From Clavelina lepadiformis (Eukaryota > Chordata > Ascidiacea > Aplousobranchia > Clavelinidae): 64,000 bases of DNA. Of the stretch, positions 6,688 to 62,955 are shown one piece after another. How positions within the stretch are numbered: position 1 is the stretch's first letter; each line of letters begins with the position of its first letter. Below the pieces are notes generated by a model, which was not told the origin of the DNA, did no database searches, and worked only from the letters and a program-made list of their open reading frames with translations. The translations under genes and the position numbers were made by a program. Where the stretch lies: NCBI RefSeq assembly GCF_947623445.1, contig NC_135248.1, positions 1,674,001 to 1,738,000 of the forward strand, read 5' to 3'.

Positions 6688-6689
6688 TC

Positions 6690-19567: not shown

Positions 19568-19569
19568 CT

Positions 19570-21235: not shown

Positions 21236-21237
21236 TT

Positions 21238-25500: not shown

Positions 25501-25507
25501 AGTACTT

Positions 25508-25733: not shown

Positions 25734-25802
25734 TTTTACTTTTTCAAGAACCTCAATCTGATGCTCCTTTAAATCCGTAAAGTTATCGTTGTTTGATGTT
25801 GC

Positions 25803-26368: not shown

Positions 26369-26369
26369 G

Positions 26370-26890: not shown

Positions 26891-26893
26891 TGC

Positions 26894-28730: not shown

Positions 28731-28744
28731 CTGTAAGATAGGAA

Positions 28745-30170: not shown

Positions 30171-30196
30171 GTTAATGGCTGCTTTTATTTTCCAAG

Positions 30197-30721
30197 TTTT
30201 TGCAGCCATCGTCGGACCGTCTTTAACACTCGGCATTGGATGTGGAATCATCGAAGCCAATGTCTTTCCAGTTTTAGCAATTCTAGTTGATACTCGACAT
30301 AAGTCTGATTATGGCAGCGTTTACGAAATAGCCGATATCTCGATATGCTTGGGATTTATCATAGGTATGGCAGCCAAATTGTCTAACGTTATATATTATT
30401 CTTAAAACCATTGCAATTATTCTTTCATCATAGTAATTATAAAAGTATCATTTCAACAGTCAACAGCTGTTAACGTTTCATTTACAGGTCCACTACTGAC
30501 TGGTTCTCTCCTTCAACTGATCAGCTTTTCCTGGGTTTTGTGGATGCTGACCATCGTGTTGTGTCTTTTCGCTCCTTGTCATGTGTTCTTCAAAAACGCT
30601 TCTCAACGCAAATGCGACGAAACAGAAGTATAAGTTACAGTTTTCGGAATAGCATCAAGTGTATTTGATTTCATAGACTTTAAATCATATTTATTTGCAG
30701 GGATTTTGGATGGCTTCATGA
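30197..30721 (+). pseudogene. SLC18-like 3' fragment (exons 7-9)
   Basis: Exon 7 (about 30197-30364) encodes the TM9-TM11 part with ILVDTRHKSDYGSVY and EIADISICLG. It has one extra base near its 5' end relative to the 167-nt family exon. Exon 8 (30488-30627 or to the TAA at 30631-30633) encodes TM12. If the GTATAA donor is used, a short last exon GFWMAS-stop follows an acceptor at 30700. Exons 1-6 are absent. Intron 7 is almost identical to that of gene B (30365-30487 versus 35867-35989), while the exon 8 tail (KNASQRKCDETEV) has diverged. A truncated copy that shares recent sequence exchange with the array. Confidence 0.7.
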
Positions 30722-31110
30722 ATACAAAAACTGTTGAAAATTGAAAGCTATTTTCATGCCAATGGTTTCCGTCAAATGTTCTTTGAACAACACCATTTGT
30801 ACAACTATAGATTCAACTATATAGCAACTTATATATAATTGTAGTACAGTATTCTCTTCACTTGTTGCCAACAATTTGCCAATAAAGACATATTCCTTCT
30901 TGGCCATTGCTCTACAAGCAAATGTTTTACCTTTGTAACCAAAACGTTATCACCATTAATTGCTAATCGCGATAAATTCATTTGAATTGTGAATTTCTTA
31001 ACGAAAACGAACCTTTCACACCGACGTGAAAGATTACAATGGAAGAGAAAATATTATTATTCATCCATATTGACATTATCGTCAACTTGCGCAAAGTTTT
31101 AAAAAAGATG
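30722..31110. other. No gene seen
   Basis: AT-rich interval between the transporter fragment and the LTR-element fossil. Confidence 0.35.
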
Positions 31111-31114
31111 CTCA

Positions 31115-31990
31115 TCAGCAATGACAATTATGATTAATCGTGATTCATCAAGATCACCACAATTGTGTGGCGATCGCGTCCTTTTCACGTCACCATATCC
31201 GCTGGGTAGGCACGGGCCAGTCCTTGTCTCATTTGTTCCCATGAGAACAAGAAGCTCTTTCAAAATATCTGCCTTGACCAGGATGAACATCTTCGCGCGC
31301 ACCGTAGCCGCGTCCAATACAAAGGTTTGATTAAAATCGGGTAACTGACTCGCTTGTTAAAACGTTCTTAAAAATCTCAAACGCGTTCCGGTATTCATCG
31401 GTCCAGAAAAACTTTTTTCCTTACACGGTACGTTTGCGTAGATGTGCTGCAATATGGGCAGAGTCTTCAATGGATTGTTTGAAATAAAAAGGTTAAGCCG
31501 ACAAATTGTCCGACGTGTTTGACTGACCACGGAATTGGCCATTCCGCTACAAAGCGAGTCTTGTCTGAATTGCATTTCATGTCTTGTTGAGACACCAAGT
31601 GACCAAGGAAATGAGCCTCGGTGTTAAACAACCTAAATTTCGTAGGCTTAAGAGTTAACATCCGCTTTAAATCAATTCAAATCTATACAGAATTTTTTGT
31701 TAGTACTGTACAACCATACAGAAATACGTCTTCAAGATAAGCCACATCGCCGCTTCACTCCACGCCATGCAGCACCGTTCGCATGCGGCGCTGAAAACTG
31801 GCAGCAGGGTCACACAACCCCATGACATGACGACACATAATTTCATAGGACCCTGTGTTTTTAACAAAGTAATATGGAAGATTTCTGCAATTAATCTTTC
31901 GAAGCAATGACCAAGTTTTGACAAATCACCAGTTTCCACAAAGAAGGACGTTTGCTGTAACGGAACAAAGACGGCAGGGTAGGTCAAATA
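31115..31990 (-). mobile_element. Ty3-type (gypsy) LTR-retrotransposon pol fossil
   Basis: Minus-strand reading shows short blocks typical of the reverse-transcriptase region of Ty3-type pol, including a LKPTKFRLF-type block followed by FLGHLVS. It is broken by several disruptions and truncated. No long terminal repeats, gag or integrase were recognised nearby. It lies between the 3' fragment and gene B, upstream of the transporter array. Confidence 0.65.
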
Positions 31991-31999
31991 AAATAACTT

Positions 32000-32177
32000 T
32001 TTAACAGGCAGTTTTTAACAGGTGAGCATATGATATAAGGTATTGACAAGATTTTAAGTAGCGCATTTATACATAACTACAGCTAATCTTTAAGCGTTTA
32101 TTTTATTTTCAATTTTTTGTTTTGTAAGCCGCAGCAGCAGCATAGCAGTTCTATTTAGTGCAAAGTAAAATATAACT
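32000..32177 (+). promoter_or_regulatory. 5' flank of gene B (different from the other genes)
   Basis: The 180 bp before the ATG of gene B do not resemble the spacers before genes C-G. There is no CRE octamer and no ctgtatc/gatacag hairpin. The flank contains a gcagcagcagcatagcag run shortly before the ATG. Gene B therefore probably has its own control region. Confidence 0.4.
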
Positions 32178-35100
32178 ATGGGTGTTTTGGAACGATTTCG
32201 AAATTCTAGAACAACATCGGTTGCCATTGTTTTTTCGATGCTGTTGATCGATTATTTGTTGCTATTTGCAATCGGTGAGTGGAAAATAAGTTACGTTGTA
32301 ACTGTTGTCTGTTGTGTTTTAAACAAAAATGTTCCTTACAATAAAAATAAATAGAAATATACAATTAAAAGCTGACAGCATAACGCTAAAATTTGTAATA
32401 ACACAATGTTGTCTTCTTTTTATTAACAGTTCCAGTAATTCCGGCTTTTCTTTGGAAACATCATCAAAAGTCGCTGAATATTTCAGTAGAAATCAGTTGC
32501 AATAAATCTACCAATGATCCAAGCTTGTTTGCATTTAATGTAACTCTGCCACCTAACCATAATAGCGCAACAGAAAAAAGCGAATCGCAAAAACTTTGCA
32601 AGCAAAATATGGAAAAAGCTTATCTCAAAACACAAAGCGTCAAAATTGCCGCCATTATCGCTGCCAAACCTGCCGTGCAAGTGATTGCAAACCTGCTCAT
32701 GGGTCCATTGATTGACAGGATTGGATACAGTGTTCCAATGTTCTTTGGTGTGATAGTGATTTGTACAACGGCTACAAGTAAGTTGGTTGTCTGACATTTT
32801 TAATGAATGCCTAAGCATTGTTGTAAAGTTATGTGGAAGGCAAGTAATTTTCATGACAAGATATGGATTGCTGGTAGCCTAGGTCAATTCATTTCCGAAC
32901 AAATAACCTCTGTTACCCAAGTTAATTCAAATTTATTGGACAATTTGTCTAGAGTTCATACCGTGGCCGACTAAATTGATTGAGTTAGGGTACCATGACG
33001 CTATTTTAACAAAGTTTTAGGAATGGGTATTGTTACAGTAAGTTATTGATTCTAAATTAATAGTTTTCGGGCTTAATGATTTATACATAGCTTTGAGTAA
33101 ATTCACTCTTGGATGTGTACATGCTCCACGCGTAACGTGAAATCCAAGTTAAACAATTTTGCGCAGCAAAAGTGATCAGCTACAAAACCTTACTTAATGT
33201 GTAATTATAAACATTTTTGCACAGCGTTTGGCTTGGGACAGAGCTATGTGGCTTTGCTGGTATCTGCTGCCATACAAGGGATCGGTTCCGCTTGCGCCAT
33301 GGCAGGAGGGATGGCGATGTTAATGAGGAAGTACACTGAAGATGAGGAGAGAGGGAAAGTGATCGGGATATCGTTGGGAGCAATAGGAATTGGAGCAATA
33401 GGTGGGAACCTTGCTTACAATCTAATGTAAAACTGAAATCGTTTTTTCGAACACTGTGTCCATATACAATTCATTCCACTTGAAATAAAGTATTCTGGTA
33501 CTTAACAAGTTAACTCCTTTTAAGCAAGCATGTGCAATTTTTTTATATACAAATAGATTACAATGTGTAAACGGTATACAGTACAAGCACAAAGTTTGAC
33601 GATGAACCGAACTTTGCATGAACCCAAGAAAGGAATTACTATCCGAAGACAAATATTGTGATATTATACCACATCAAACAAAGCCAGATAAATTTTACAC
33701 AAATTGTTCATTTAACACCGTTGCTCATCAACAAAACTAAAATCCTCCTCACGAATTAAAAAAGTTTCGTAGCTTAGGTTTGATCTCATACAAGAGTCTC
33801 TTATAGCTGGTTGGAAAGAGTTTTATCCAATTCTTAACATGGGTCTCTTGTGAAAAATGTTTTTATTGTTATTACAAAATGCACGCGAATAGAGTCGAAT
33901 AAAATGATGTTTAAAATCGTGGATTAGTTTATGTCATATCTATTCTATGCGTCCATTTATTCCAACTACTGTAGTGATTGAAAATGTTTTCTTTTTTCAA
34001 AGCGGGCCCTCCTTATGGGAGTGTTATGAATGCTTTTGCCGGTAAAGCAACAACATTTCTTCTGCTCGGGGGTATCATTGCAGCTATCGGGATATTCCAA
34101 GTCTTCTACAGTCGTCTTAAAATCGAAAGAAAAAGTGAGGTAAGGCAAGTGTTGTGTGTAAACTCGTTCAGTTTGATGTAGAAGCTTTCACTGATCTTTG
34201 GGAATGGGAAGCCATGCGGCAAAATAGTTTCCGTTATTCTGTCCACTGATATTAATACAACAACAACTTATGCAGTACACATTGTGACCTTGTAGCTGTT
34301 AACGAATGGTTTTGCTCGAGCCTCTTTCGACTACGTGTTTGCCGGTTAACCTGTACAGATACACGCACCAAATTAAGATTTTGTTTCATCTATATCGGCA
34401 TAAGTTTTTTCATTGAACTATTTAAAACTTTTCTGAGGCGTCAACAAAATGAAGTAGTAGGATAGGAAAATGACAGTTTTTACGGAATCGTTAACATTTA
34501 AAACATCTTTCATTTGGTTGGTGGTGTACCGTGCCGATATCATTTCTGAATATTTGACTAGAGCGAGAAAGTTACATCATTGTGGAAGTTATTGGCGGAC
34601 CCGTACATTATTTTGGCTGCAACCTCACTGATGCTGGTCAACATCGCTTTCGGAATCTTTAACTCAGGTTTGCCAGCCTGGCTCATACAACGATTCAACT
34701 CACCCAAGTGGATGCTAGGTAAGTGTTTTTTTCATGCAAGGCGTTTGTGAATGTTTGCAGCTGACAATGTTCTTATGCCGGGCCCTATTGAAACTACAGA
34801 GTCATCGTCATGACTTCGGAGAGGCAAAGTCAAATTCTTCTTAAAAAACATTAATGTTTTTACATTTGTCATTCTAGGCGATATCAAACATTATATAAAC
34901 CAAACTGCTGAAAGTTCCATTTAAAGTTATTTAACTCTAAATCATCATCAATCAAAACAAGTTGTTTAACCAACCTAACTCAACTAACACCGCCATTTTT
35001 ACACTAAAACCTTTAACAAAAAACATTAGCTTAAGATTGCGTCATTGCTTGTGGCAGCGATATCGAAATACAATACCCGCACTTTGATAGTTAATGGAAG

Positions 35101-36248
35101 TATCCATTCATCAAATCTTGGCCATTATTCACTAATTGGTGTCATTATTAGACACCAAAGTCTAATATGCTTTTAGTCATGCACCAATGTTTATACATTG
35201 TTGCTTAGACGTGGTCTGTACCTTTATTTATTATACACAAGTGCGTTGTTTTATTCAGGTCTTGCATTTATACCAGTTTGTATTGGCTACGCCGTTACAA
35301 CAAACGTGCTTTCATTTCTTCCAATGAGAAACATGCGCTGGTTGGTTGCATTGGTCGGGACCTACATGTCCGTTGCAGCCTGCTTAAGTTTGCCATTTTC
35401 AACCAGGTTCGCACGTCATAATATTAACTGCAGTGACGTCATGCAACGACACGTGCTTTATTGCATTCAATAGGTTGCCCCACCTAAGAGTTATTTGGTT
35501 TGAAATAATTAAACTCTGCATAAAAGTAACGTAACTAATGAAGAGTCTAGTACGATATCTTTGAAATTGTGGTAAAAGTTACTAATTGTCGAACTAGGCT
35601 AAGACCAACTTTTCAACAAAGTATTACACGTGTTAGTGATGGCAGATTTTCATGCGTTTAATCTAGAATAACTTTAATAACATTCATTACTGTTCCAAGC
35701 TTTGCTGCCACCATCGGACCAACATTAATACTCGGCATTGGATGTGGATTAATTGAAGTCAATATTTATCCAATTTTGGCAATTCTAGTTGACACACGAC
35801 ATAAGTCTGATTATGGTAGCGTTTACGCAATAGCCGATATCTCGATATGCTTGGGATTTATCATAGGTATGGCAGCCAAATTGTCTAACGTTATATATTA
35901 TTCTTAAAACCATTGCAATTATTCTTTCATCATAATAATTATAAAAGTATCATTTCAACAGTCAACAGCTGTTAACGTTTCATTTACAGGTCCACTACTG
36001 ACTGGTTCTCTACTTCAACTGATCAGCTTTTCCTGGGTTTTGTGGATGCTGACCATCGTGTTGTTTCTTTTCGCTCCTTTTCTTGTCTTTTTGAAGAAAC
36101 CGATTCAAGGAAAACCAGACCAAGAGACAGAGGTGAAATATTTGAAAATTTGTTTAAGTTTATCCCATGGCAAAGTGTGTAAATTATTTTATTTGTTTTG
36201 CAGAGTTTACTAGACGGGTCTGTGTCCGCAAAGAATGTGGAAGAATAG
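32178..36248 (+). CDS. SLC18-like transporter, gene B (first of array)
   Basis: Nine exons: 32178-32274, 32430-32777, 33225-33401, 34003-34139, 34562-34718, 35259-35406, 35700-35866, 35990-36132, 36204-36248; 472 codons plus stop, all GT-AG. Family hallmarks: Asp25 in TM1 (LLIDYLLLF), a 60-residue lumenal loop with N-glycosylation sites (NIS, NKS, NVT), Lys112 and Gln116 in TM2 (AAKPAVQ), motif A GPLIDRIG, QGIGSAC in TM4, YTEDEERGKVIG, GPPYGSV in TM5, GLPAWLIQRF after TM7, ILVDTRHKSDYGSVYAIAD in TM10-11. In VMATs these acidic and basic residues couple proton export to amine uptake. The TM4 Arg and TM7 Glu of VMATs are Ala and Asn here. By inference it is a vesicular proton antiporter for a small cation of unknown identity. 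Exon 2 carries the FAFNVTLPP loop type shared only with gene G. Possible AATAAA at 36581. Confidence 0.88.
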
Positions 36249-37439: not shown

Positions 37440-40400
37440 ATGGTTGTGAACGATTATAATTTAACAATGAGTGTGTTGGAACGATTTCGAAATTCTAAAA
37501 CAACATCAGTTGCCATTGTTTCATCAATTTTATTGATCGATTATTTGTTGCTATTTGCAATCGGTGAGTAGAACATTTGTTACGTCATGGCTATTTGTTA
37601 TATTTTAAAGACTTCGTTCCTGATACATTATACATGAACAAATCGAAATACATTATATGAAACGCGAATGACACAACGCTTAATAACTTACCATAACGTG
37701 ATTTGTGCTCATTACAATATGTTTTCTCTTTGTCAACAGTCCCAGTAATACCTGTTTTTCTTTGGAAACATCATCAAAAGTCACTGAATCTTTCAGTGGA
37801 AATCAGTTGCAATAAATCTAAGATTGACCAAAGCATTTCTGCAATAACAATAACGCCATTTAATCATAATAACACAATAGAAGATAATGAATCGAAAAAC
37901 CTAAGCAAGCAAAGCATGGAAAATGCTTATCTCAAAACACAAAGCGTCAAAATTGCCGCCATTATTGCTGCCAAACCTGCTGTGCAAGTAATTGCAAACC
38001 TGCTAGTAGGTCCATTGATTGACAGGATCGGATACAGTGTTCCAATGTTCTGTGGTGTGATAGTGATTTGTACAACGGCTACAAGTAAGTTAGTTGTCTG
38101 ACGTTTTCAATGAATGCCTAAGCATTGTTGTAAAGTTATGTGGAATGCTAGAGTAATTTTCATGACAAGGCATGGATTGCTGGTGGGCCCATTCATTTCC
38201 GAACAAATAACCTTTGTGACCCGGGTTGATCTAAACTTATTGGACAATATATCTGGATCCATTAGAGCCGAATGAATTGATTGAGTTGGGGTATCATGAC
38301 GCTATTCTAACAAAGTTTTAGAAATGAGCTTACAGTAAGTTATTGATTCTAAGTTAATAGTTTTCGGGCTTAACGATTTATGCATAGCATTGAGTGAATT
38401 CACTCTTGGATTTGTACATGCTCCATGCGTGAAGTGATCTCCAAGTTAAACAATTATGTGCAGCAAAAGTGATCAGCTACAAAACCTTAATTAAAGTGTA
38501 ATTATAAACTTTTATGCACAGCGTTTGGCATGGGACAAAGCTATGCGGTTTTGCTGGTATCTGCTGCCATACAAGGAATCGGTTCTGCTTGCGCCATGGT
38601 AGGAGGGATGGCCATGTTAATGAGGAAGTATACTGAAGATGAGGAGAGAGGAAAAGTGATCGGGTTATCTCTGGGAGCAATAGGAATTGGAGTAATAGGT
38701 GGGGAACCTTGCTTACAATCTAATGTAAAATAGAAATTGTTTTTTCGAACACAATGTCCATATACAATTCATTCTATTGAAATTCATTCATTGAAATGAA
38801 GTTATTTTTTGGGTTGGATTTTATCAAGTTGTCTTGATTTAAAAATTTATTGTACCTTTTCTAGTACTTTAAATAGATTACAACGTGTAAACGGTATACA
38901 TTACAAGCACAAAGTTTGAGGATGAATGGAACTTTGCATGAACCCAAGAAAAGAATTACAGTCTGAAGACAAATATTGTGATATTATACCATATCAAACA
39001 AAGCCGGAAATATTTTACACAAATTGTTCATTTAAAACCGTTGCAAAATAACAAAACTACAATCCACCTCACGAATTAAAAAAGTTTGTTAACTTTGATT
39101 TGATCTCATGCAAGAGTCTCTTATAGCTTGTTGGAAAGAGTTTTATACAATTTCTTAAAATGGGTCTCTTGTAAAAAATGTGTTTATTGTTATTACAAAA
39201 TGCACGCGAATAGAGTCGAATAAAATGATGTTAAAAATCGTGGATTTGTTTATGTCATATCTATTCTATGCGTCCATTTATTCCAACTACTGTAGTGATT
39301 GAAAATGTTTTCTTTTTTCAAAGCGGGCCCTCCTTATGGGAGTGTTATGAATGCTTTTGCCGGTAAAGCAACAACATTTCTTCTGCTCGGGGGTATAATT
39401 GCAGCTATCGGGATATTCCAAGTCTTCTACAATCGTCTTAAAATCGAAAGAAAAAGTGAGGTAAGGCAAGTGTTGTGTGTAAACTCGTTCAGTTTGATGT
39501 AGAAGCTTTCACTGATCTTTGGGAAGAGGAAGCCATGCGGCAAAATAGTTTCCGTTATTCTGTCCACTGATATTAATACAACAACAACAACCTATGCAGT
39601 ATACATGGTGACCTTGTAGCGTTTAATGAATGATTTTTCTCGAGCCTCTTTCGATTACGTGTTTGCCGGTTAACCTGTACAGATACATGCATCAAATTAA
39701 GATTTTCTTTCATCTATATCGGCAAAAGTTTTTCACTGAACAATTTAAAACTTCTCTGAGACGTCAACAAAATGAAGTAGTAGGATAGGAAAATGACAGT
39801 TTTTACGGAATCGTTAACATTTAAAACATCTTTTATTTTGGTTGGTGGTGTACCGTGCTGATTTAATTCTGAATATTTGACTAGAGCGAGAAAGTTACAT
39901 CATTGAGGAAGTTATTGGCGGACCCGTACATTATTTTGGCTGCAACCTCACTGATGCTGGTCAACATCGGTTTCGGAATCTTTAACTCAGGTTTGCCAGC
40001 CTGGCTCATACAACGATTCAACTCACCAAAGTGGATGCTGGGTAAGTGTTTTTTTCATGCAAGGCGGTTGTGAATGCTTGCTGCTGCAGCTGACAATCTT
40101 CTTGTGCCAGCTCTATTGAAACTACAGAGTCATCGTCATGACTTCGGAGAGGCGAAGTCAAATTGTTCTTAAAAACAATAATGGTTTTACATTTGTCATT
40201 CTAGGCGATGTCAAACATTATATGAACCAAACTGCTGAAACTTCCATTTAAAGTCATTTAACTCTAAATCATGATCAATCAAAACAAGTTGTTTAGCCAA
40301 CCTAACCCAACTAACACCGCCATTTTTACACTAAAACCTTTAACAAAAAACATTAGCTTAAGATTGCGTCATTGCTTGTGACAGCGATATCGAAATACAA

Positions 40401-41577
40401 TACCCGCACTTTGATAGTCAATGGAAGTATCCATTCATCAAATCTTGGCCATTATTTACTGATTGGTGTCATTATTAGACACTAAAGTCCAATATGCCTT
40501 CAGTCCTGCACCAATGTTTATACGTTGTTGCTTAGACGTGGTCTGTACCTTTATTTATTATACACAAGTGTGTTGTTTTATTTAGGTCTTGCATTTATAC
40601 CAGTTTGCATTGGCTACGCCGTTACAACAAACGTGCTTTCATTTATCCCGATGAGAAACATGCGCTGGTTTCTTGCTTTGGTCGGGACCTACATGTCTGT
40701 TGCAGCCTGCTTAAGTTTGCCATTTTCAGCCAGGTTCGCACGTCATATTATTAACTGCATTGACGTCATGCAACGACACGTGCTTTATTGCATTCAATAG
40801 GTTGCCCCACCTAAGAGTTATTGGGTTTGAAATAATCAAACTCTGCATAAAAGTAACGTAACTAATGAAGAGTCTTGTACGATATCTTTGAAATTGTGGT
40901 TAACGTTAATAATCGTCGAGCTAGGTTACGACCAACTTTTCAACAAAGTATTACACGTGTTGGTGATGGTAGATTTTCATGTGTTGAATCTAGAATGACT
41001 TTAATAACATTCATTACTGTTCCAAGCTTTGCTGCCACCATCGGACCGACATTAACTCTCGGCATTGGATGTGGATTAATTGAAGTCAATATTTATCCAA
41101 TTTTGGCAATTCTAGTTGACACACGACATAAGTCTGATTATGGTAGCGTGTACGCAATAGCTGGTATCTCGATATGCTTGGGATATATCATAGGTATGGC
41201 AGCCAAATGACCTAACGTTATATATTTTTCTAACAACCTATATGCAATTATTATTTCATCATAATAATTATAAAAGTATCATTTCAACAGTCAACAGCTG
41301 TTAACGTTTCATTTACAGGTCCACTACTGACTGGTTCTCTCCTTCAACTGATCAGCTTTTCCTGGGTTTTGTGGATGCTGACCATCGTGTTATTTCTTTA
41401 CGCTCCTTTTCTTGTTTTCTTGAAGAAACCGATTCAAGGAAAACCAGAAGAAGAGACAGAGGTGAAATGGTTGAAAATTTGTTTAAGTTTATCCCATGGC
41501 AAAGTGTGTAAATTGTTTCATTTGTTTTGCAGAGTTTACTAAACGGGTCTGTGTCCGCAAAGAATGTGGAAGAATAG
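37440..41577 (+). CDS. SLC18-like transporter, gene C (TM11 Asp replaced by Gly)
   Basis: Exons 37440-37563, 37740-38084, 38522-38698, 39324-39460, 39885-40041, 40586-40733, 41027-41193, 41319-41461, 41533-41577; 480 codons plus stop. The upstream ATG adds MVVNDYNLT; the ATG at 37467 matches the start of gene B, so either could be used. Open and correctly spliced throughout. Lumenal loop is of the ITITPFNHNNT type shared by C-F. TM1 Asp, TM2 Lys and TM10 Asp are present, but exon 7 reads AIAGISIC where all other array genes read AIADISIC. The lost Asp aligns with the TM11 Asp of VMATs, which is needed for transport. Gene C may thus be inactive or changed in mechanism although no stop is present. 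It also differs by SARFARH just beyond exon 6 and a W-to-F change (RWFLALV). Confidence 0.87.
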
Positions 41578-43270: not shown

Positions 43271-46200
43271 ATGGTAGTGAACGAGTATAATTTAACAATG
43301 AGTGTGTTGGAACGATTTCGAAATTCTAAAACAACATCAGTTGCCATTGTTTCATCAATTTTATTGATCGATTATTTGTTGCTATTTGCAATCGGTGAGA
43401 AGAACATTTGTTACGTCATGGCTATTTGTTATATTTTAAAGACTTCGTTCCTTATACATTATACATGAACAAATCGAAATACATTATATGAAACGCGAAT
43501 GACACAACGCTTAATAACTTACCATAACGTGATTTGTGCTTATTACAGCATGTTTTCTCTTTGTAAACAGTTCCAGTAATCCCGGCTTTTCTTTGGAAAC
43601 ATCATCAAAAGTCACTGAATCTTTCAGCAGAAATCAATTGTAACAAATCTAAGATTGACCAAAGCATTTCTGCAATAACAATAACGCCATTTAATCATAA
43701 TAACACAATAGAAGATAATGGATCGAAAAACCTAAGCAAGCAAAGCAGCCAAAATATGGAAAACGCTTATCTCAAAACACAAAGCGTCAAAATTGCCGCC
43801 ATTATCGCTGCCAAACCTGCTGTGCAAGTAATTGCAAACCTGCTAGTAGGTCCATTGATTGACAGGATCGGATACAGTGTTCCAATGTTTTGTGGTGTGA
43901 TAGTGATTTGTACAACGGCTACAAGTAAGTTAGTTGTCTGACGTTTTCAATGAATGCCTAAGCATTGTTGTAAAGTTATGTGGAATGCTATAGTAATTTT
44001 CATGACAAGGCATGGACTGCTGGTGGGCCCATTCATTTCCGAACAAATAACCTTTGTGACCCGGGTTGATCTAAACTTATTGGACAATATATCTGGATCC
44101 ATTAGAGCCGAATGAATTGATTGAGTTGGGGTATCATGACGCTATTCTAACAAAGTTTTAAAAATGAGCTTACAGTAAGTTATTGATTCTAAGTTAATAG
44201 TTTTCGGGCTTAACGATTTATGCACAGCATTGAGTGAATTCACTCTTGGATTTGTACATGCTCCATGCGTAAAGTGATCTCCAAGTTAAACAATTTTGTG
44301 CAGCAAAAGTGATCAGCTACAAAAACCTTACTTAATGTGTAATTATAAACTTTTATGCACAGCTTTTGGCTTGGGGCAGAGCTATGCGGTTTTGCTGGTA
44401 TCTGCTGCCATACAAGGGATCGGTTCTGCTTTCGCCATGGCAGGAGGGATAGCCATGTTAATGAGGAAGTATACTGAAGATGAGGAGAGAGGAAAAGTGA
44501 TCGGGTTATCTCTGGGAGCAATAGGAATTGGATCAATAGGTGGGAAATCTTGCTTACAATCTAATGTAAAACTGAAATCGTTTTTTCGAACACAATGTCC
44601 ATGTACAACTCATTCCACTTGAAATGAACTTTTTGTTGGGTTGGATTTTATAAAGTTGTCTTGATTTAAAAATTGCTTGTACCTTTTCTAGTACTCAACA
44701 AGTTTTTAACTCCTTTTAAGCAAGCATGTGCAATTTTTTTATTTACAAATAGATTACAATATGTAAACGGTATACAGTACAAGCACAAAGTTTTACGATG
44801 AACCGAACTTTGCATGAACCCAAGAAAAGAATTACACTCTGAAGACAAATATTGTGATATTATACCAAATCAAACAAAGCTGGAAATATTTTACACAAAT
44901 TGTTCATTTAAAACCATTGCAAAATAACAAAACTAAAATCCACCTCACGAATTAAAAAAGTTTCGTAACTTTGATTTGATCTCATACAAGAGTCTCTTAT
45001 AGCTTGTTGGAATGAGTTTTATACAATTTCCTAAAATAGGTCTCTTGTAACAAATGTGTTTATTGGTATTACAAATTGCACGCGAATAGAGTCGAATAAA
45101 ATGATGTTAAAAATCGTGGATTAGTTTATGCAATATCTATTCTATGCGGCCAATTATTCCAACTACTGTAGTGATTGAAAACGTTTTCTTTTTTCAAAGC
45201 GGGCCCTCCTTATGGGAGTGTTATGAATGCTTTTGCCGGTAAAGCAACAACATTTCTTCTGCTCGGGGGTATCATTGCAGCTATCGGGATATTCCAAGTC
45301 TTCTACAGTCGTCTTAAAATCGAAAGAAAAAGTGAGGTAAGGCAAGTGTTGTGTGTAAACTCGTTCAGTTTGATGTAGAAGCTTTCACTGATCTTTGGGA
45401 ATGGGAAGCCATGCGGCAAAATAGTTTCCGTTATTCTGTCCACTGATATTAATACAACAACAACTTATGCAGTACACATTGTGACCTTGTAGCTGTTAAC
45501 GAATGGTTTTGCTCGAGCCTCTTTCGACTACGTGTTTGCCGGTTAACCTGTACAGATTCACGCACCAAATTAAGATTTTGTTTCATCTATATCGGCATAA
45601 GTTTTTTCATTGAACTATTTAAAACTTTTCTGAGGCGTCAACAAAATGAAGTAGTAGGATAGGAAAATGACAGTTTTTAAGGAATCGTTAACATTTAAAA
45701 CATCTTTCATTTGGTTGGTGGTGTACCGTGCCGATATCATTTCTGAATATTTGACTAGAGCGAGAAAGTTACATCATTGTGGAAGTTATTGGCGGACCCG
45801 TACATTATCTTGGCTGCAACCTCACTGATGCTGGTCAACATCGGTTTCGGAATCTTCAACTCAGGTTTGCCAGCCTGGCTCATACAACGATTCAACTCAC
45901 CAAAGTGGATGCTCAGTAAGTGTTTTTTTCATGCAAGGCTGTTGTGAATGCTTGCTGCTTCAGCCGATAATCTTCTTATGCCGGGCTCTATTAAAACAAC
46001 AGAGTCATCGTCATGACTTCGGAAAGGCAAAGTCAAATTCTTCTTAAAAAACATTAATGTTTTTACATTTGTCATTCTAGGCGATATCAAACATTATATG
46101 AACCAAACTGCTGAAACTTCCGTTTAAAGTCATTTAACTCTAAATCATGATCAATCAAAACAAGTTGTTTAACCAACCTAACCCAACTAACACCGCCATT

Positions 46201-47451
46201 TTTACACTAAAACTTTTAACAAAAAACATTAGCTTAAGATTGCGTCATTGCTTGTGACAGCGATATCGAAATACAATTCCCGCACTTTGATAGTCAATGG
46301 AAGTATCCATTCATCAAATATTGGTCATTATTTACTAATTGGTGTCATTATTAGACACTAAAGTCCAATATGCCTTCAGTCCTGCACCAAGATTTATGTG
46401 TTGTTGCTTAGACGTGGTCTGTACCTTTATTTATTATACACAAGTGCGTTGTTTTATTCAGGTCTTGCATTTATACCAGTTTGCATTGGCTACGCCGTTA
46501 CAACAAACGTGCTTTCATTTATTCCAATGAGAAACATGCGCTGGTTGGTTGCATTGGTCGGGACCTACATGTCGGTTGCAGCCTGCTTAAGTTTGCCATT
46601 TTCAACCAGGTTCGCACGTCATATTATTAACTGCATTGACGTCATGCAACGACACGTGCTTTATTGCACTCAATAGGTTGCCCCACCTAAGAGTTATTTG
46701 GTTTGAAATAATCAAACTCTGCATAAAAGTAACGTAAATAATGAAGAGTCTTGTACGATATCTTTGACATTGTATTAAAGGTTACTAATGGTCGAACTGG
46801 GCTAAGACCAACTTTTCAGCAAAGTTTTACACGTGTTAGTGATGGTAGATTTTCATGTGTTCAATCTAGAATAACTTTAATAACATTCATTACTGTTCCA
46901 AGCTTTGCTGCCACCATCGGACCAACATTAATACTCGGCATTGGATGTGGATTAATTGAAGTCAATATTTATCCAATTTTGGCAATTCTAGTTGACACAC
47001 GACATAAGTCTGATTATGGCAGCGTTTACGCAATAGCCGATATCTCGATATGCTTGGGATTTATCATAGGTATGGCAGCCAAATTGTCTAACGTTATATA
47101 TTATTCTTAAAACCATTGCAATTATTCTTTCATCATAATAATTATAAAAGTATCATTTCAACAGTCAACAGTTGTTAACGTTTCATTTACAGGTCCACTG
47201 CTGACTGGTTCTCTCCTTCAATTGATCAGCTTTTCCTGGGTTTTGTGGATGCTGACCATCGTGTTATTTCTTTACGCTCCTTTTCTTGTCTTTTTGAAGA
47301 AACCGATTCAAGGAAAACCTGACCAAGAGACAGAGGTGAAATGGTTGAAAATTTGTTAAAGTTTATCTAATGGCAAAGTGTGTAAAATATTTTATTTGTT
47401 TTGCAGAGTTTACTAAACGGGTCTGTGTCCGCAAAGAATGTGGAAGAATAG
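43271..47451 (+). CDS. SLC18-like transporter, gene D
   Basis: Exons 43271-43394, 43571-43924, 44363-44539, 45200-45336, 45759-45915, 46462-46609, 46903-47069, 47193-47335, 47407-47451; 483 codons plus stop. Its own features: three extra residues (SSQ) in the lumenal loop just before TM2, making exon 2 354 nt; a Ser at the exon 5/6 junction (donor CTCA-GTAAGT instead of CTGG or CTAG); and SIG rather than VIG at the end of exon 3. All four charged VMAT-type residues are retained. The intron between exons 4 and 5 resembles that of gene B rather than those of its neighbours C and E, which suggests exchange between copies. Confidence 0.88.
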
Positions 47452-51600: not shown

Positions 51601-52778
51601 CAATACCTGCACTTTGATAGTTAATGGAAGTATCCATTCATCAAATCTTGGCCATTATTCACTAATTGGTGTCATTATTAGACACCAAAGTCTAATATGC
51701 TTTTAGTCATGCACCAATGTTTATACGTTGTTGCTTAGACGTGGTCTGTACCTTTATTTATTATACACAAGTGCGTTGTTTTATTCAGGTCTTGCATTTA
51801 TACCAGTTTGTATTGGCTACGCCGTTACAACAAACGTGCTTTCATTTATTCCAATGAGAAACATGCGCTGGTTGGTTGCATTGGTCGGGACCTACATGTC
51901 CGTTGCAGCCTGCTTAAGTTTGCCATTTTCAACCAGGTTCGCACGTCATAATATTAACTGCAGTGACGTCATGCAACGACACGTGCTTTATTGCATTCAA
52001 TAGGTTGCCCCACCTAAGAGTTATTTGGTTTGAAATAATTAAACTCTGCATAAAAGTAACGTAACTAATGAAGAGTCTAGTACGATATCTTTGAAATTGT
52101 GGTAAAAGTTACTAATTGTCGAACTAGGCTAAGACCAACTTTTCAACAAAGTATTACACGTGTTAGTGATGGCAGATTTTCATGCGTTTAATCTAGAATA
52201 ACTTTAATAACATTCATTACTGTTCCAAGCTTTGCTGCCACCATCGGACCAACATTAATACTCGGCATTGGATGTGGATTAATTGAAGTCAATATTTATC
52301 CAATTTTGGCAATTCTAGTTGACACACGACATAAGTCTGATTATGGTAGCGTTTACGCAATAGCCGATATCTCGATATGCTTGGGATTTATCATAGGTAT
52401 GGCAGCCAAATTGTCTAACGTTATATATTATTCTTAAAACCATTGCAATTATTCTTTCATCATAATAATTATAAAAGTATCATTTCAACAGTCAACAGCT
52501 GTTAACGTTTCATTTACAGGTCCACTACTGACTGGTTCTCTACTTCAACTGATCAGCTTTTCCTGGGTTTTGTGGATGCTGACCATCGTGTTGTTTCTTT
52601 TCGCTCCTTTTCTTGTCTTTTTGAAGAAACCGATTCAAGGAAAACCAGACCAAGAGACAGAGGTGAAATGGTTGAAAATTTGTTTAAGTTTATCCCATGG
52701 CAAAGTGTGTAAATTATTTTATTTGTTTTGCAGAGTTTACTAGACGGGTCTGTGTCCGCAAAGAATGTGGAAGAATAG
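48644..52778 (+). CDS. SLC18-like transporter, gene E
   Basis: Exons 48644-48767, 48944-49288, 49724-49900, 50535-50671, 51093-51249, 51789-51936, 52230-52396, 52520-52662, 52734-52778; 480 codons plus stop. Complete, with Asp in TM1, Lys-x3-Gln in TM2, and Asp in TM10 and TM11. From exon 5 to the end it is almost identical to gene B, down to the VNIAFGIFNSG wording and the FARHNINCSDV read-through at intron 6, whereas its first four exons resemble C/F. It is therefore a mosaic whose right half belongs to a recently duplicated block. The 12 bp ctgtaaataact just before exon 4 is a small private duplication. Confidence 0.88.
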
Positions 52779-53969
52779 TTGCAATTGTTTTATCTACGGC
52801 TTCATAATTTCAGTTGAAACTAAATGTTTTGTCTAACTTGAGATTCCTGCGCCCACAGTTGTATTGTAGACTATTGCTGACTGTCATGCCATGTTGTTGA
52901 AGCCGACAGTTAGCCAATTAAGTTAGACGTGTTGCACAACACACATGTTAAACTTGTAAAATGTAGATTCAGTATATGCAACTTTCCTTTTCATAAGTAA
53001 ATATTTCTTTTCGGGATATTTATTGACATTAAAGTGACATTGTTAGCATTTTTCTGTTTGTTCTTCATGCCCATTGAGATGGAACAGACAAAAGCAGCGT
53101 TTCCAACACTAATAAATCAAATTTAGCCCATATCACTTGCAAACAAATTCTGTTATGCATGAATGCAACGACGTCTTAATGACGTCAAAAGTAGGTGACT
53201 TGAAAGAGGTTGAGTGCTACTGTAATGTGCTTTCCTTACTCCGCTGCGCGCCCTCCATAGTTAAAAACATAACAAAACTTAAACTTTATAATCGTACAGC
53301 AGGTCACAGTTGAAAACGTGGATTTAAACCATACAGGTACCCGGCACCACGCAAATATTTCGGTTGAACTAAACGCTAATTACAATGACCAGAAGATTAA
53401 GTTAGTGTTTTCAAAACGCAAAGTTTACGCGTACATTGAATTGAACTCGCATATTCACGTCATGTTTACTCGTTGACTAATTCGTGATTCGACAACACAA
53501 ATTCCAATTTGTTTTCAAACCAACAAGCGTAAAAATACCTTAAATATTTTCTATAGCAAGGAAGACATTATTTGTAACTTAAGATTTCTCCTAACTACAA
53601 CCACTATTCAATTGTCCTATTTCACAACAAAAACATTGCTCAAAACACAAACTGGCACATCCTACCAGCATTCGTTAAAGCCCGAGCACTTTACATTGTT
53701 ATAGAAGTACTTAATGTTGGGAAGAATAATGACAAAATTAGGCGTATTTAACAGCATAGCGATGTTCAGATTTTAACAAATCGCTTGTTTCCTCCGGAAA
53801 GCGTGTTCTGTATCCTGACAGATACAGCGACGTTTCACAGGCCTAAATCCTTGAAGCAGTATTAACGATTCAGTGTAGGAGTTTAGAGAATGACAATTTG
53901 TAAAGGGGCGTTACGGTCAAAGTAAGTTTTCATGGATTTCAGAATTCAAGATTTTGTTTTGCAAAGAAC
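52779..53969 (+). promoter_or_regulatory. Spacer E-F with CRE and hairpin
   Basis: TGACGTCA at 53180-53187 and hairpin at 53808-53827. I see essentially no differences from the spacer at 36249-37439, displaced by 16,530 bp. Confidence 0.5.
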
Positions 53970-56900
53970 ATGGTTGTGAACGATTATAATTTAACAATGA
54001 GTGTGTTGGAACGATTTCGAAATTCTAAAACAACATCAGTTGCCATTGTTTCATCAATTTTATTGATCGATTATTTGTTGCTATTTGCAATCGGTGAGTA
54101 GAACATTTGTTACGTCATGGCTATTTGTTATATTTTAAAGACTTCGTTCCTGATACATTATACATGAACAAATCGAAATACATTATATGAAACGCGAATG
54201 ACACAACGCTTAATAACTTACCATAACGTGATTTGTGCTCATTACAATATGTTTTCTCTTTGTCAACAGTCCCAGTAATACCTGTTTTTCTTTGGAAACA
54301 TCATCAAAAGTCACTGAATCTTTCAGTGGAAATCAGTTGCAATAAATCTAAGATTGACCAAAGCATTTCTGCAATAACAATAACGCCATTTAATCATAAT
54401 AACACAATAGAAGATAATGAATCGAAAAACCTAAGCAAGCAAAGCATGGAAAATGCTTATCTCAAAACACAAAGCGTCAAAATTGCCGCCATTATTGCTG
54501 CCAAACCTGCTGTGCAAGTAATTGCAAACCTGCTAGTAGGTCCATTGATTGACAGGATCGGATACAGTGTTCCAATGTTCTGTGGTGTGATAGTGATTTG
54601 TACAACGGCTACAAGTAAGTTAGTTGTCTGACGTTTTCAATGAATGCCTAAGCATTGTTGTAAAGTTATGTGGAATGCTAGAGTAATTTTCATGACAAGG
54701 CATGGATTGCTGGTGGGCCCATTCATTTCCGAACAAATAACCTTTGTGACCCGGGTTGATCTAAACTTATTGGACAATATATCTGGATCCATTAGAGCCG
54801 AATGAATTGATTGAGTTGGGGTATCATGACGCTATTCTAACAAAGTTTTAGAAATGAGCTTACAGTAAGTTATTGATTCTAAGTTAATAGTTTTCGGGCT
54901 TAACGATTTATGCATAGCATTGAGTGAATTCACTCTTGGATTTGTACATGCTCCATGCGTGAAGTGATCTCCAAGTTAAACAATTATGTGCAGCAAAAGT
55001 GATCAGCTACAAAACCTTAATTAAAGTGTAATTATAAACTTTTTTGCACAGCGTTTGGCATGGGACAAAGCTATGCGGTTTTGCTGGTATCTGCTGCCAT
55101 ACAAGGAATCGGTTCTGCTTGCGCCATGGTAGGAGGGATGGCCATGTTAATGAGGAAGTATACTGAAGATGAGGAGAGAGGAAAAGTGATCGGGTTATCT
55201 CTGGGAGCAATAGGAATTGGAGTAATAGGTGGGGAACCTTGCTTACAATCTAATGTAAAATAGAAATTGTTTTTTCGAACACAATGTCCATATACAATTC
55301 ATTCTATTGAAATTCATTCATTGAAATGAAGTTATTTTTTGGGTTGGATTTTATCAAGTTGTCTTGATTTAAAAATTTATTGTACCTTTTCTAGTACTTT
55401 AAATAGATTACAACGTGTAAACGGTATACATTACAAGCACAAAGTTTGAGGATGAATGGAACTTTGCATGAACCCAAGAAAAGAATTACAGTCTGAAGAC
55501 AAATATTGTGATATTATACCATATCAAACAAAGCCGGAAATATTTTACACAAATTGTTCATTTAAAACCGTTGCAAAATAACAAAACTACAATCCACCTC
55601 ACGAATTAAAAAAGTTTGTTAACTTTGATTTGATCTCATGCAAGAGTCTCTTATAGCTTGTTGGAATGAGTTTTATACAATTTCTTAAAATGGGTCTCTT
55701 GTAAAAAATGTGTTTATTGTTATTACAAAATGCACGCGAATAGAGTCGAATAAAATGATGTTAAAAATCGTGGATTTGTTTATGTCATATCTATTCTATG
55801 CGTCCATTTATTCCAACTACTGTAGTGATTGAAAATGTTTTCTTTTTTCAAAGCGGGCCCTCCTTATGGGAGTGTTATGAATGCTTTTGCCGGTAAAGCA
55901 ACAACATTTCTTCTGCTCGGGGGTATAATTGCAGCTATCGGGATATTCCAAGTCTTCTACAATCGTCTTAAAATCGAAAGAAAAAGTGAGGTAAGGCAAG
56001 TGTTGTGTGTAAACTCGTTCAGTTTGATGTAGAAGCTTTCACTGATCTTTGGGAAGAGGAAGCCATGCGGCAAAATAGTTTCCGTTATTCTGTCCACTGA
56101 TATTAATACAACAACAACAACCTATGCAGTATACATGGTGACCTTGTAGCGTTTAATGAATGATTTTTCTCGAGCCTCTTTCGATTACGTGTTTGCCGGT
56201 TAACCTGTACAGATACATGCATCAAATTAAGATTTTCTTTCATCTATATCGGCAAAAGTTTTTCACTGAACAATTTAAAACTTCTCTGAGGCGTCAACAA
56301 AATGAAGTAGTAGGATAGGAAAATGACAGTTTTTACGGAATCGTTAACATTTAAAACATCTTTTATTTTGGTTGGTGGTGTACCGTGCTGATTTAATTCT
56401 GAATATTTGACTAGAGCGAGAAAGTTACATCATTGAGGAAGTTATTGGCGGACCCGTACATTATTTTGGCTGCAACCTCACTGATGCTGGTCAACATCGG
56501 TTTCGGAATCTTTAACTCAGGTTTGCCAGCCTGGCTCATACAACGATTCAACTCACCAAAGTGGATGCTGGGTAAGTGTTTTTTTCATGCAAGGCGGTTG
56601 TGAATGCTTGCTGCTGCAGCTGACAATCTTCTTGTGCCAGCTCTATTGAAACTACAGAGTCATCGTCATGACTTCGGAGAGGCAAAGTCAAATTGTTCTT
56701 AAAAACAATAATGGTTTTACATTTGTCATTCTAGGCGATGTCAAACATTATATGAACCAAACTGCTGAAAGTTCCATTTAAAGTCATTTAACTCTAAATC
56801 ATCATCAATCAAAACAAGTTGTTTAACCAACCTAACCCAACTAACACCGCCATTTTTACACTAAAACCTTTAACAAAAAACATTAGCTTAAGATTGCGTC

Positions 56901-59298: not shown

Positions 59299-62200
59299 AT
59301 GGTAGTGAACGAGTATAATTTAACAATGAGTGTGTTGGAACGATTTCGAAATTCTAGAACAACATCGGTCGTCATTGTTTTTTCAATTTTATTAATCGAT
59401 TGTTTGTTGCTATTTGCAATCGGTGAGTAGAACATTTGTTACGTCATGGCTATTTGTTTTATTTTAAAGACTTCGTTCCTTATACATTATACATGAACAA
59501 ATCGAAATACATTATATGAAACGCGAATGACACAACTCTTAATAACTTACCATAACGTGATTTGTGCTCATTACAATATGTTTTCTCTTTGTCAACAGTT
59601 CCAGTAATACCTGTTTTTCTTTGGAAACATCATCAAAAGTCACTGAATCTTTCAGTGGAAATCAGTTGCAATAAATCTACCAATGATCCAAGCTTGTTTG
59701 CGTTTAATGTAACTCTGCCGCCTAACGATGATAGCGCGACAGAAAAAAGTGAATCGCAAAAACTTTGCAAGCAAAATATGGAAAATGCTTTTCTCAAAAC
59801 ACAAAGCATCAAAATTGCCGCCATTATTGCTGCCAAACCTGCCGTGCAAGTGACTACCAACCTTATAACAGGTCCATTGATTGACAGGATCGGATACAGT
59901 GTTCCAATGTTCTTTGGCGTGATAGTGATTTGTACAACGGCTATAAGTAAGTTAGTTGTTTGATACATTTATTGTACATATTATCATTCAATTTCATGCA
60001 AGGCATATACGAATTACATTCCAAGATGTGAAGTTTTTATTGGTCAAATCATTCCGCTCCACCCAACCTTTATAACCTATGTTAAATAGAATTATTAGCT
60101 TTGGGCTTATGGAGAAGACAAACGCTGTACCGAGCTTCTCGCAATGCTTACGGTGTCTACAAATGTTCTTGATGATGGTACAGCAAAAGGCTGTTAAACT
60201 AATAAATCCAGACATCTAGTCCGGATGACCGAAAAAAAAACATTTAATCAGACGACAAATCGGAACATAAATACTGTATATTTTATCTTATCCAGATAAA
60301 GATTTTACGATAAACCTAACTCCAATAAAGTTATAAATGTTTTCGCATAGCCTTTGGCCTGGGGCAGAGCTATACAGTGTTGCTGGTATCTATCGCCATA
60401 CAAGGGATCGGCGCCGCTTGTGCAATGGCAGGAGGAATGACGATGTTGGTGAGGAAATATGCTGAAGATGAGGAGAGAGGAAAAGTGATCGGGATAGCTT
60501 TGGGAGCGATTGGAATTGGAATAATAGGTGAGAACTGCTGGTGAAGATAGAGCATAGACACAAAACTAAACTGCTGTAGGCAGAATTGACCAATCAACGC
60601 CATTCAAGTGATTGTTACGAAATTATGTTCTCGTTCGGGCTTTCTAAGTTTTTCTTGACTGAAAGTAGGTTTTAAGCATTCTTATGATTGGGAATTTTTT
60701 TAAGCGGGCCCGCCTTATGGGAGTGTTATGAATGCTTTTGCCGGTAAACCAACAACATTTCTTCTGCTTGCGGGTATCATTGCAGTTGTTGAAGTATTCC
60801 AAGTCTTCTACAGTCGTCTTAAAATCGAAAGAAATAGTCACGTATGGCAAGTCTTTAGGCTTAGTTTTGTTTGATATGGACGCTCTCCTTCAAGCAAAGG
60901 AAGCTCTGTGCTATAAAGTGGTTTCCGTTTTTCTGTCAACTTACATTAATAAAACAACAATTTATAATGATTGATTTGGCTTGGGTCTCTTTTGACTAGT
61001 TGTTTGTAATTCAAAGAAGAATTTTTTCCATCGCGATTTGGCAAGCTTCTTTTCGTACAAACATTTCAAAATATCTTTATGATAGGCATACGTCATTTGA
61101 ATAATGTGACACGATACGAAAAATCACTTTCTACTTTTTAATTTTTATTCTCCATGATACTAAAATCGTCTTTTCGATGCTGGTATACGGTACCTAATGT
61201 TTGAACATTTTACAAAGGACGAGGAGGCAACCTCGATATGGACGTTATTGGTGGACCCGTACATTATCTTGGCGGCATCCCCGCTAATGTTGGTTAGCAT
61301 CAGTTTTGGAATCTTCAACACAGGTTTGCCAGCCTGGCTCATACAACGATTCAACTCACCAAAGTGGATGCTTGGTAAGTGTCTTACACACAGGACGTCT
61401 GTACTTGTATGAAGCCTAATGATTATAGCTTTAAAATTATTGCAAATCGAGAATTTCGTTATATGACGTGACATCAAGTTTTGCATCTGACGTTTTACTG
61501 CAAGTAGGTTCGCAATTATACATCTGTATTGTTCTGTAGATGAAATTAGTGCCTGATATTGTGTAGACCAGAACACACTAAAGTATACGTATAGGCTTAC
61601 AAGATTATGACATATTTCTTTCGTTATATGATAACTCAAGTTAATAGACAGCACCGGGCCACTACATGTTATTGATAGGCATCTAAGACCACTACCTCTG
61701 TGTTATGTTTAGAGGTCGTTGAGTAAACATAACTCATCTTCATGTGCTTTTCAGGTCTCGTATTTGTACCAACCTGCATAGGCTACATTGTTACAACAAA
61801 CGTCTTTTCATTTATTCCGATAAGAAACATGCGCTGGCTGGTTGCATTGGTCGGGGCCTATATTTCCGTTGCAGCCTGCTTAAGTTTGCCATTTTCAACC
61901 AGGTTCGCACGTCATATTATTAACTGCTTTTTTGTTACTGACGTTGTGCTATGAACCGCTGCCACCACATGCACTTTAAGTTGGCAGTTGCACTATAATA
62001 GCTTTAATGCCGATTACAATCTTGATATATTATTATAATAAATAATTATTTACTTATTATTCTTTGAAGCTTTGCTGCCACAATTGGACCGACATTAACA
62101 CTCGGCATTGGATGTGGGTTAATTGAAGTCAATATTTATCCAATTATGGCAATTCTAGTTGACACTCGACATAAGTCTGCTTATGGCAGCGTCTATGCGA

Positions 62201-62955
62201 TAGCCGATATCTCAATATGCTTGGGATATATCATAGGTATGGCCATCACTTCATATGATAAGAAGTCCAAAACCAGTTTACCTTAAATCGAAACATATTT
62301 GTCTCTAAAAGTGGCGTACTCTGGATTGCGTTGATGGAGGGTGGCTTTGAAAAAGCTGGTTCTAAAACTTCTGCGCTTAACTTTCGCTTATTCTGGAAAC
62401 ACTTAAGGTTGTGTCCGAAAAATTTAATTTTTTTTTGGATTCGAAAAAGGAAACTTTCCGCTTATAGCTAATTGTCCGCTAAGGCAGGTGTGCACTTATT
62501 TAATTATTCTCAAGTGTATTTTTATGCTAACACTTGTAACTTTAGATTTATCCAACCGCCATCAAAAATGCAGTAAGCTGGATAAATTTTCATCGATACT
62601 TATAGGAATTTCGCCAATTCTTAGGCTTATGGCTAATTAGATTAAACCAGTCAACACAAAACATATTTCAATCAAGTAGGTTGCTGATGTTCTTTACAGG
62701 TCCACTACTGACCGGTGCCCTCCTTCAAGTGATCAGCTTTTCCTGGGTTTTGTGGATACTAACCATCGTGTTTTTTCTTTTTGCTCCATGTCTTGTCTTC
62801 TTGAAGAAACCGATTGAACGAAGATCAAACGAAGAAACAGAGGTAAAATGTTTGGGGATTTATAACGAATCATCCGATTTGAAAGTCTTTAAAATTTATT
62901 TTATTTGCAGAGTTTACTGAACAGTTCTGTGTCCGCAAAGAATGAAAAGGATTGA
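59299..62955 (+). CDS. SLC18-like transporter, gene G (last, most diverged of array)
   Basis: Exons 59299-59422, 59599-59946, 60351-60527, 60705-60841, 61218-61374, 61755-61902, 62070-62236, 62700-62842, 62911-62955; 481 codons plus stop. Promoter, exon 1 and intron 1 match genes C-F, but introns 2-8 are unrelated or much shorter and the exons are more diverged. TM1 Asp (LLIDCLLLF), TM2 Lys, and both TM10/TM11 Asp are present. A Ser replaces the TM7 Asn of the other genes (LVSISFGIF). TM6 carries an unusual Glu (AVVEVFQVF). The exon 4 donor is CAC-GTATGG. The C-terminus ends NEKD. Exon 2 has the FAFNVTLPP loop shared with gene B. A possible AATAAA polyadenylation signal is at 63211-63216. Confidence 0.87.

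What the first reader, a model, noticed from the sequence alone, without database searches (positions are those of the whole stretch)
30197..62955. Six intact head-to-tail SLC18-like transporters plus a 3' remnant in 33 kb
Vertebrates carry single dispersed VMAT/VAChT genes. Here six open, correctly spliced genes repeat with a ~5.3 kb period (starts at 32178, 37440, 43271, 48644, 53970, 59299), with further relatives on both strands at 4-10 and 27 kb. This is a lineage-specific expansion of a neurotransmitter-type vesicular transporter family and suggests a dosage demand or new substrates.
Basis: partly seen in the sequence, partly recalled or inferred. Interest (0 to 1): 0.7.

Follow-up and report, generated by a model that had tools for sequence, protein, structure and literature searches.

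The report
Amplified VMAT-like transporters in sea squirt
A sea squirt chromosome carries six intact head-to-tail copies of a gene descended from the transporter that loads amine messengers into vesicles, part of a family of more than thirty copies whose binding pocket has changed, so they probably package something other than the usual neurotransmitters.

Summary
Six nine-exon genes lie head to tail at 32178-62955, all with GT-AG introns, no internal stop and 472-483 aa. A remnant with two 3' exons lies at about 30190-30633. Copy c2 is SLC18A-type: VMAT2 306 bits, VAChT 189, SLC18B1 30. One VMAT and one VAChT orthologue lie elsewhere. By exon 3, the genome holds at least 34 further paralogous loci, 28 on one 370-kb stretch. 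The 24 put in a tree form one clade beside Clavelina VMAT. All 25 modelled lack VMAT2 residues R189 and E312, which both orthologues keep. The six show dN/dS 0.12-0.35; the 11 close pairs measurable among other cluster members show 0.63-0.98. A one-period, 99.8%-identical segment shared by c1/c2 and c4/c5 suggests recent unequal exchange. Best reading: a birth-and-death VMAT expansion whose constrained core probably loads organic cations other than classical monoamines into acidic vesicles. Substrate, expression and location are untested.

The parts
30190..30633 (+). 3' remnant of a seventh copy: relatives of exons 7 and 8 only
   Evidence: blastn 81-92% to the 3' ends of the other copies; exon projection finds exons 7 and 8 only; tblastn
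32178..36248 (+). c1, VMAT-like gene, 9 exons, 472 aa; lacks the first ATG of the other copies and starts at the second
37440..41577 (+). c2, VMAT-like gene, 9 exons, 480 aa; the only copy of the six with G at the D426 position
   Evidence: 11 of 12 junctions from exon 2 to exon 8 found again with VMAT2 as query
43271..47451 (+). c3, VMAT-like gene, 9 exons, 483 aa
48644..52778 (+). c4, VMAT-like gene, 9 exons, 480 aa
53970..58105 (+). c5, VMAT-like gene, 9 exons, 480 aa
59299..62955 (+). c6, most divergent of the six (80-85% aa identity to the rest), 9 exons, 481 aa
34897..40273 (.). one-period segment (3' half of c1 to 5' half of c2) that recurs at +16530 (about 51427-56803, c4 to c5) with 10 differences in 5375 bases
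4092..6696 (-). divergent relative N: 8 exons in the model, no stop or frameshift, but near-neutral dN/dS against its close kin (0.85-0.98)
10142..10309 (+). fragment: relative of exon 3 only
27342..29405 (-). broken relative P: two in-frame stops; the model ends before the 3' exons, to which weak matches lie at 26978-27650
   Evidence: exon-3 hit with two stops

Best explanation
The array is the constrained core of a large family of duplicated genes descended from the vesicular monoamine transporter (SLC18A1/A2 type) in the ascidian Clavelina lepadiformis. Shown: six intact spliced genes, SLC18A sequence membership, one paralogue clade next to the animal's own VMAT, at least 34 paralogous loci, shared absence of VMAT2 positions R189 and E312 in every paralogue modelled, dN/dS well under 1 for the six, and a recent one-period exchange between units. 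Inferred: the proteins are 12-helix major-facilitator antiporters that still use a proton gradient (the counterparts of D33, K138 and D426 are kept and D399 is E; c2 alone lacks D426). They sit in acidic vesicles (an acidic dileucine-type motif ETESLL is in the C-tail of all six). With the E312/R189 side of the pocket gone, they load organic cations other than serotonin or catecholamines. The array is maintained by unequal crossing-over and gene conversion, which yields intact chimeric genes, while many other members of the cluster decay.
For: Gene models and splice sites, 11 of 12 inner junctions of c2 found again with VMAT2 alone. PDB search with c2: VMAT2 306 bits, VAChT 189, SLC18B1 30. 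Tree of 28 rows: all 24 paralogues in it form one clade (100/100) joined to Clavelina VMAT (100/99), rooted on VAChT; a 15-row tree agrees (99/98), and the alternative grouping is rejected with p-AU 0.005. Exon lengths 177, 148 and 167 are shared with Clavelina VMAT, while the VAChT match is one exon. R189 absent in 25 of 25 and E312 in 25 of 25 modelled paralogues, both kept in 4 of 4 VMAT/VAChT sequences; D399 is E in 7, D in 1, S/T/A in 16, not covered in 1. dN/dS 0.12-0.35 in 15 of 15 pairs of the six, against 0.63-0.98 in the 11 pairs with dS under 0.3 among nine other cluster members measured. A segment of 5375 bases with 10 differences at a one-period offset. ETESLL in 6 of 6 C-tails. 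E312A/D/R, N305A, Y341A/F and D399A drastically impair VMAT2 uptake of FFN246 (PMC10770148, passages); R189A nearly abolishes DTBZ binding (PMC10959523, passages).
Against: No expression, localisation or transport data. Absence of R189 and E312 could also mean loss of transport, not a new substrate. D399 kept as E, and N305, Y341 and W318 mostly kept, would also suit some amine transport. Clavelina VMAT is itself a long branch, so its joining to the paralogues could be partly long-branch attraction (warned), and no outgroup beyond VAChT was used. c2 has G at D426. Simple hydropathy finds 11, not 12, segments in c2, c4 and c6. I could not test whether other tunicates have this clade.
Confidence: 0.6

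Rival explanations
1. Dosage: the six copies are ordinary monoamine loaders, amplified to make more vesicular monoamine transport.
For: Six similar intact copies with dN/dS well under 1 and VMAT as closest solved relative.
Against: A separate VMAT orthologue that keeps R189, E312 and D399 exists at C5:1838645-1842059. The array lacks E312 and R189 in 6 of 6 copies, and mutating E312 drastically impairs VMAT2 uptake.
Confidence: 0.13
2. Birth-and-death drift: the cluster is duplication-prone, and most copies, perhaps these six too, have little or no function.
For: 9 of 15 other modelled C9-cluster members carry a stop or frameshift in the model, and the 11 measurable close pairs have dN/dS 0.63-0.98.
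Against: All six array genes are open with intact splice sites, and 15 of 15 pairs have dN/dS 0.12-0.35.
Confidence: 0.12
3. The six act elsewhere: exporters or lysosomal organic-cation transporters for detoxification, not loaders of secretory vesicles.
For: VMAT belongs to a drug-efflux-like MFS group: sub-threshold hits to TIGR00880 and bacterial multidrug families and weak hits to NorA. An acidic dileucine-type signal also fits lysosomes (recalled).
Against: Overall similarity is to VMAT over most of the length; nothing tested separates the organelles.
Confidence: 0.12
4. Assembly artefact: some units are false duplications left by the assembler.
For: One 5.4-kb segment is repeated with 10 differences.
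Against: Units c1-c5 differ by 3-13% including introns, c6 by about 29%. No N in the region. If the identification is right, the assembly is from 117-fold HiFi reads with QV 67.4 and curated removal of haplotypic duplications (PMC10884593, passages).
Confidence: 0.05

Closest known systems
SLC18A2/SLC18A1 (VMAT2/VMAT1), vesicular monoamine transporters
   Same: About 37% identity to VMAT2 over about 443 aligned residues; the VDxRHxSxYGSVYAIA stretch is shared by c2 and VMAT2; D33, K138, N305, Y341 and W318 each kept in at least 5 of 6 copies; exon lengths 177, 148 and 167 shared with the Clavelina VMAT
   Different: R189 to A/I, E312 to N, D399 to E, N34 to Y/C, N388 to T in the six; at least 34 paralogous loci
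SLC18A3 (VAChT)
   Same: Same family and many shared invariant positions
   Different: Lower score (189 against 306 bits); the Clavelina VAChT match is a single exon at C9:10.20 Mb and groups with the PDB VAChT
SLC18B1
   Same: Same superfamily; weak similarity (30 bits)
   Different: About a tenth of the VMAT2 score; not put into the trees
Bacterial drug:H+ antiporters (NorA, TIGR00880)
   Same: MFS proteins with weak similarity
   Different: Below curated cut-offs; no prokaryotic relative confirmed

Membership tests
SLC18A (VMAT/VAChT) family | Sequence similarity to SLC18A above all other solved MFS proteins | tested here: met
   phmmer of c2 against PDB: the 16 best of 24 distinct sequences are all VMAT or VAChT; the other 8 are SLC18B1 (1) and NorA (7). 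Only c2 was searched whole.
SLC18A (VMAT/VAChT) family | Phylogenetic place among SLC18A genes | tested here: met
   Trees of 28 and 15 rows; rooted on VAChT, no SLC18B1 outgroup, long-branch warnings
SLC18A (VMAT/VAChT) family | 12-helix MFS protein | tested here: inconclusive
Functional VMAT (monoamine loader) | Substrate-site acidic residue E312 | tested here: not met
   N in 6 of 6 array copies; absent in 25 of 25 modelled paralogues
Functional VMAT (monoamine loader) | R189 in the central cavity | tested here: not met
   A in five and I in one of the six; absent in 25 of 25
Functional VMAT (monoamine loader) | D33, K138, D399, D426 polar network | tested here: inconclusive
   D33 and K138 in 6 of 6; D426 in 5 of 6; D399 is E in 6 of 6
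Functional VMAT (monoamine loader) | Proton-driven uptake of monoamines into vesicles | not testable with these tools
   needs uptake assays
Vesicle-sorted SLC18 protein | Acidic dileucine-type signal in the C-tail | tested here: met
   ETESLL in 6 of 6 array copies; that such a motif sorts to vesicles is recalled, not shown. The C6 paralogue is not counted: its model probably runs past a splice donor at that point.

The most novel reading that the evidence does not exclude
A chordate has converted its monoamine-vesicle loader into a diversified set of vesicular transporters for its own nitrogenous defence chemicals (Clavelina lepadiformis contains lepadin, lepadiformine and villatamine alkaloids, PMC10884593 passage). 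The tandem array would be a transport locus for chemical defence, evolving like detoxification or immune gene clusters.
Probability: 0.12. Interest if true: 0.8.

Novelty: new variant of a known kind. Interest (0 to 1): 0.52.

Why it matters
As far as I recall, animals manage with one to a few VMAT genes, and the VMAT pocket is a drug target studied residue by residue. A tunicate with more than 30 VMAT-derived loci, every modelled one lacking two key pocket residues while a constrained subset survives, offers natural variants for learning which residues set substrate choice and proton coupling. It also raises the question of what a sea squirt packs into vesicles on such a scale. I saw no report of this expansion in the listings of five searches of the held PMC library, whose lists were capped at 12 to 15 papers each; this does not show that none exists.

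Tried and rejected
Considered and dropped: (1) SLC18B1 or another MFS family, excluded by scores. (2) The array as VAChT-like, excluded by scores and trees. (3) The six as pseudogenes, disfavoured by open frames, splice sites and dN/dS. The single TAA reported for c3 lies at 43564, in intron 1, seven bases before exon 2.

Led nowhere: prokaryotic relatives as an outgroup (39 pattern matches, none confirmed); Pfam on ten other ORFs of the window (0 of 10 with a hit at E 0.1); papers on where Clavelina keeps its alkaloids (listing only). My first hand models were one base off at exons 1 and 2 and at exon 2, corrected. In one search I reverse-complemented minus-strand loci wrongly; redid them with 0 conflicts. 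The notebook entry after says 26 modelled paralogues; the right number is 25.

Limits: 25 of 34 paralogous loci were modelled. Not modelled: eight loci (C9 near 1.374, 1.509, 1.514, 1.527, 1.532, 1.537 and 13.728 Mb, C3 near 23.629 Mb; only the one near 1.532 Mb was held, as L056) and the exon-3 fragment at window 10142. Two pieces without exon 3 (window 30190 remnant, C9:1672362) are outside the 34. P was left out of the tree. The spliced aligner is my own and can place false frameshifts or weak exons at gene ends, so stop and frameshift counts are approximate; two C7 models carry one frame mark near the start, and one of them had none with another query. In one search only the nine frameshift-free members (A, B, D, H, J, K, N, P, R) could be measured, with stop codons skipped; C, E, F, G, I and L were not, and the 11 close pairs come from two groups (A/J and B/D/H/K/N). 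Counts are lower bounds, as those outputs say. That the PDB VMAT2 and VAChT chains are the human proteins is recalled.
Full report
OBSERVATION. I rebuilt each gene from sequence. Exons of copy 2 were set by hand and projected to the others. The six genes start at 32178, 37440, 43271, 48644, 53970 and 59299 and end at 36248, 41577, 47451, 52778, 58105 and 62955. Each has 9 exons, 8 of 8 GT-AG introns, no internal stop, and 472-483 aa. A spliced aligner that I wrote, given VMAT2 only, returned 11 of 12 junctions of c2 between the donor of exon 2 and the acceptor of exon 8; the acceptor of exon 5 came out 6 bases downstream, and exons 1 and 9 were not found with that query. Whole-unit identities are 87-97% among c1-c5 and about 71% to c6. 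The remnant at about 30190-30633 has relatives of exons 7 and 8 only.

ORGANISM. The window is C9:1674001-1738000 of a 209,060,895-base assembly in 95 contigs. Contigs C1 to C9 measure 28.784, 26.530, 25.735, 25.071, 24.617, 20.772, 20.449, 19.510 and 15.726 Mb. The Clavelina lepadiformis paper lists 28.79, 26.54, 25.74, 25.07, 24.62, 20.77, 20.45, 19.51 and 15.73 Mb, 210.1 Mb in 102 scaffolds (PMC10884593, passages seen). Nine of nine agree within 0.011 Mb, so the animal is very probably this ascidian (lineage). The total and scaffold number differ slightly, and I did not check any marker gene.

FAMILY. Against solved structures, c2 scores 306 bits with VMAT2, 189 with VAChT, 30 with SLC18B1 and about 22 with NorA. 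Pfam gives MFS_1 only. The genome keeps an intron-containing VMAT at C5:1838645-1842059 (VMAT2 407 bits, VAChT 258) and a VAChT whose match is one exon at C9:10204627-10206009 (VAChT 526 bits, VMAT2 335). With three exon-3 queries I found 36 places in all: these two, 28 on C9 between 1.373 and 1.740 Mb, one each at C9:13.728, C3:23.629 and C6:15.282 Mb, and three at C7:1.123-1.133 Mb (union; lower bounds). Thus 34 paralogous loci. One has two stops in exon 3 and one is a fragment; both are in the window.

TREE. In a 28-row tree (24 paralogues, PDB VMAT2 and VAChT, the two Clavelina orthologues), the paralogues form one clade (100/100) joined to Clavelina VMAT (100/99), rooted on VAChT. A 15-row tree without the divergent members agrees (99/98), and holding PDB VMAT2 and Clavelina VMAT together without the paralogues is rejected at p-AU 0.005. 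Both outputs warn of long branches, among them Clavelina VMAT. Exon lengths 177, 148 and 167 of the array recur in Clavelina VMAT, while the VAChT match has no introns.

POCKET. R189 and E312 of VMAT2 are kept in the two PDB and the two Clavelina orthologues and are absent in 25 of 25 modelled paralogues. In the six, E312 is N, R189 is A or I, D399 is E, N34 is Y or C and N388 is T; D33 and K138 are kept in all and D426 in five, with G in c2. In VMAT2, E312A/D/R, N305A, Y341A/F and D399A drastically impaired FFN246 uptake (PMC10770148, passages). E312Q greatly reduced and R189A nearly abolished DTBZ binding (PMC10959523, passages). I infer that the array does not carry classical monoamines in the VMAT2 manner. 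The effect of D399E was not looked up, and loss of transport is not excluded by sequence alone.

SELECTION AND TURNOVER. Pairwise NG86 dN/dS among the six is 0.12-0.35 in 15 of 15 pairs, with dS 0.05-0.32. Of the other 15 modelled C9-cluster members, 9 carry a stop or frameshift in the model. Nine members without frameshift could be measured, and their 11 pairs with dS under 0.3, from two groups only, give 0.63-0.98. The window array is therefore the constrained part of a cluster that is at least partly decaying; the estimates are crude and the pairs are not independent. The next gene downstream (C9:1738280-1741782, R) has no stop or frameshift in its model. The segment 34897-40273 recurs at +16530 with 10 differences in 5375 bases, while other unit pairs compared have exact runs of at most 473 bases, against 2373 here. 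It spans the 3' half of c1 to the 5' half of c2 and matches c4 to c5. Its length is about one period, so it looks like a recent unequal exchange or conversion that left intact chimeric genes. c1 and c6 also share a luminal-loop type unlike c2-c5.

MECHANISM. Most likely an H+-coupled MFS antiporter in acidic vesicles. The kept D33/K138/E399/D426 network and the ETESLL motif of the C-tail (6 of 6) suit this; both steps are inferred. The substrate is probably an organic cation other than serotonin or catecholamines. Clavelina alkaloids are an attractive but untested candidate (genome paper passage; listing). No expression data were available.

NOVELTY. [quoted passage not shown] the 12 passages that I saw mention no tunicate expansion. 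Five searches of the held PMC library showed no such report in their capped listings. I rate it a new variant of a known kind.

Noticed in passing
C9:1562-1668 kb (L018, L019, L023-L026, L028, L029): A repeated two-gene block: divergent relatives B+C, D+E, H+I and K+L recur as pairs about 4-5 kb apart, so a segmental duplication of a gene pair runs upstream of the window.
   Followed up: partly
C7:1120872-1134587 (L042, L055, L060): Three further paralogues, two on the minus and one on the plus strand, with S or T at the D399 position.
   Followed up: partly
window 18183-18254 (-): A single tRNA match (34 bits, gathering 29); could be a gene or a tRNA-derived repeat.
   Followed up: no
window 123-719 and 3553-4154: An 85%-identical direct repeat of about 600 bases near the left end of the window.
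   Followed up: no
window 10000-27000: No Pfam domain in the seven ORFs from this stretch that were sent to Pfam; other ORFs there were not tested.
   Followed up: partly
window 37440-41577 (c2): Only c2 has G at the VMAT2 D426 position among the 24 modelled paralogues that cover it; a possible recent change in an otherwise conserved proton-network residue.
   Followed up: no
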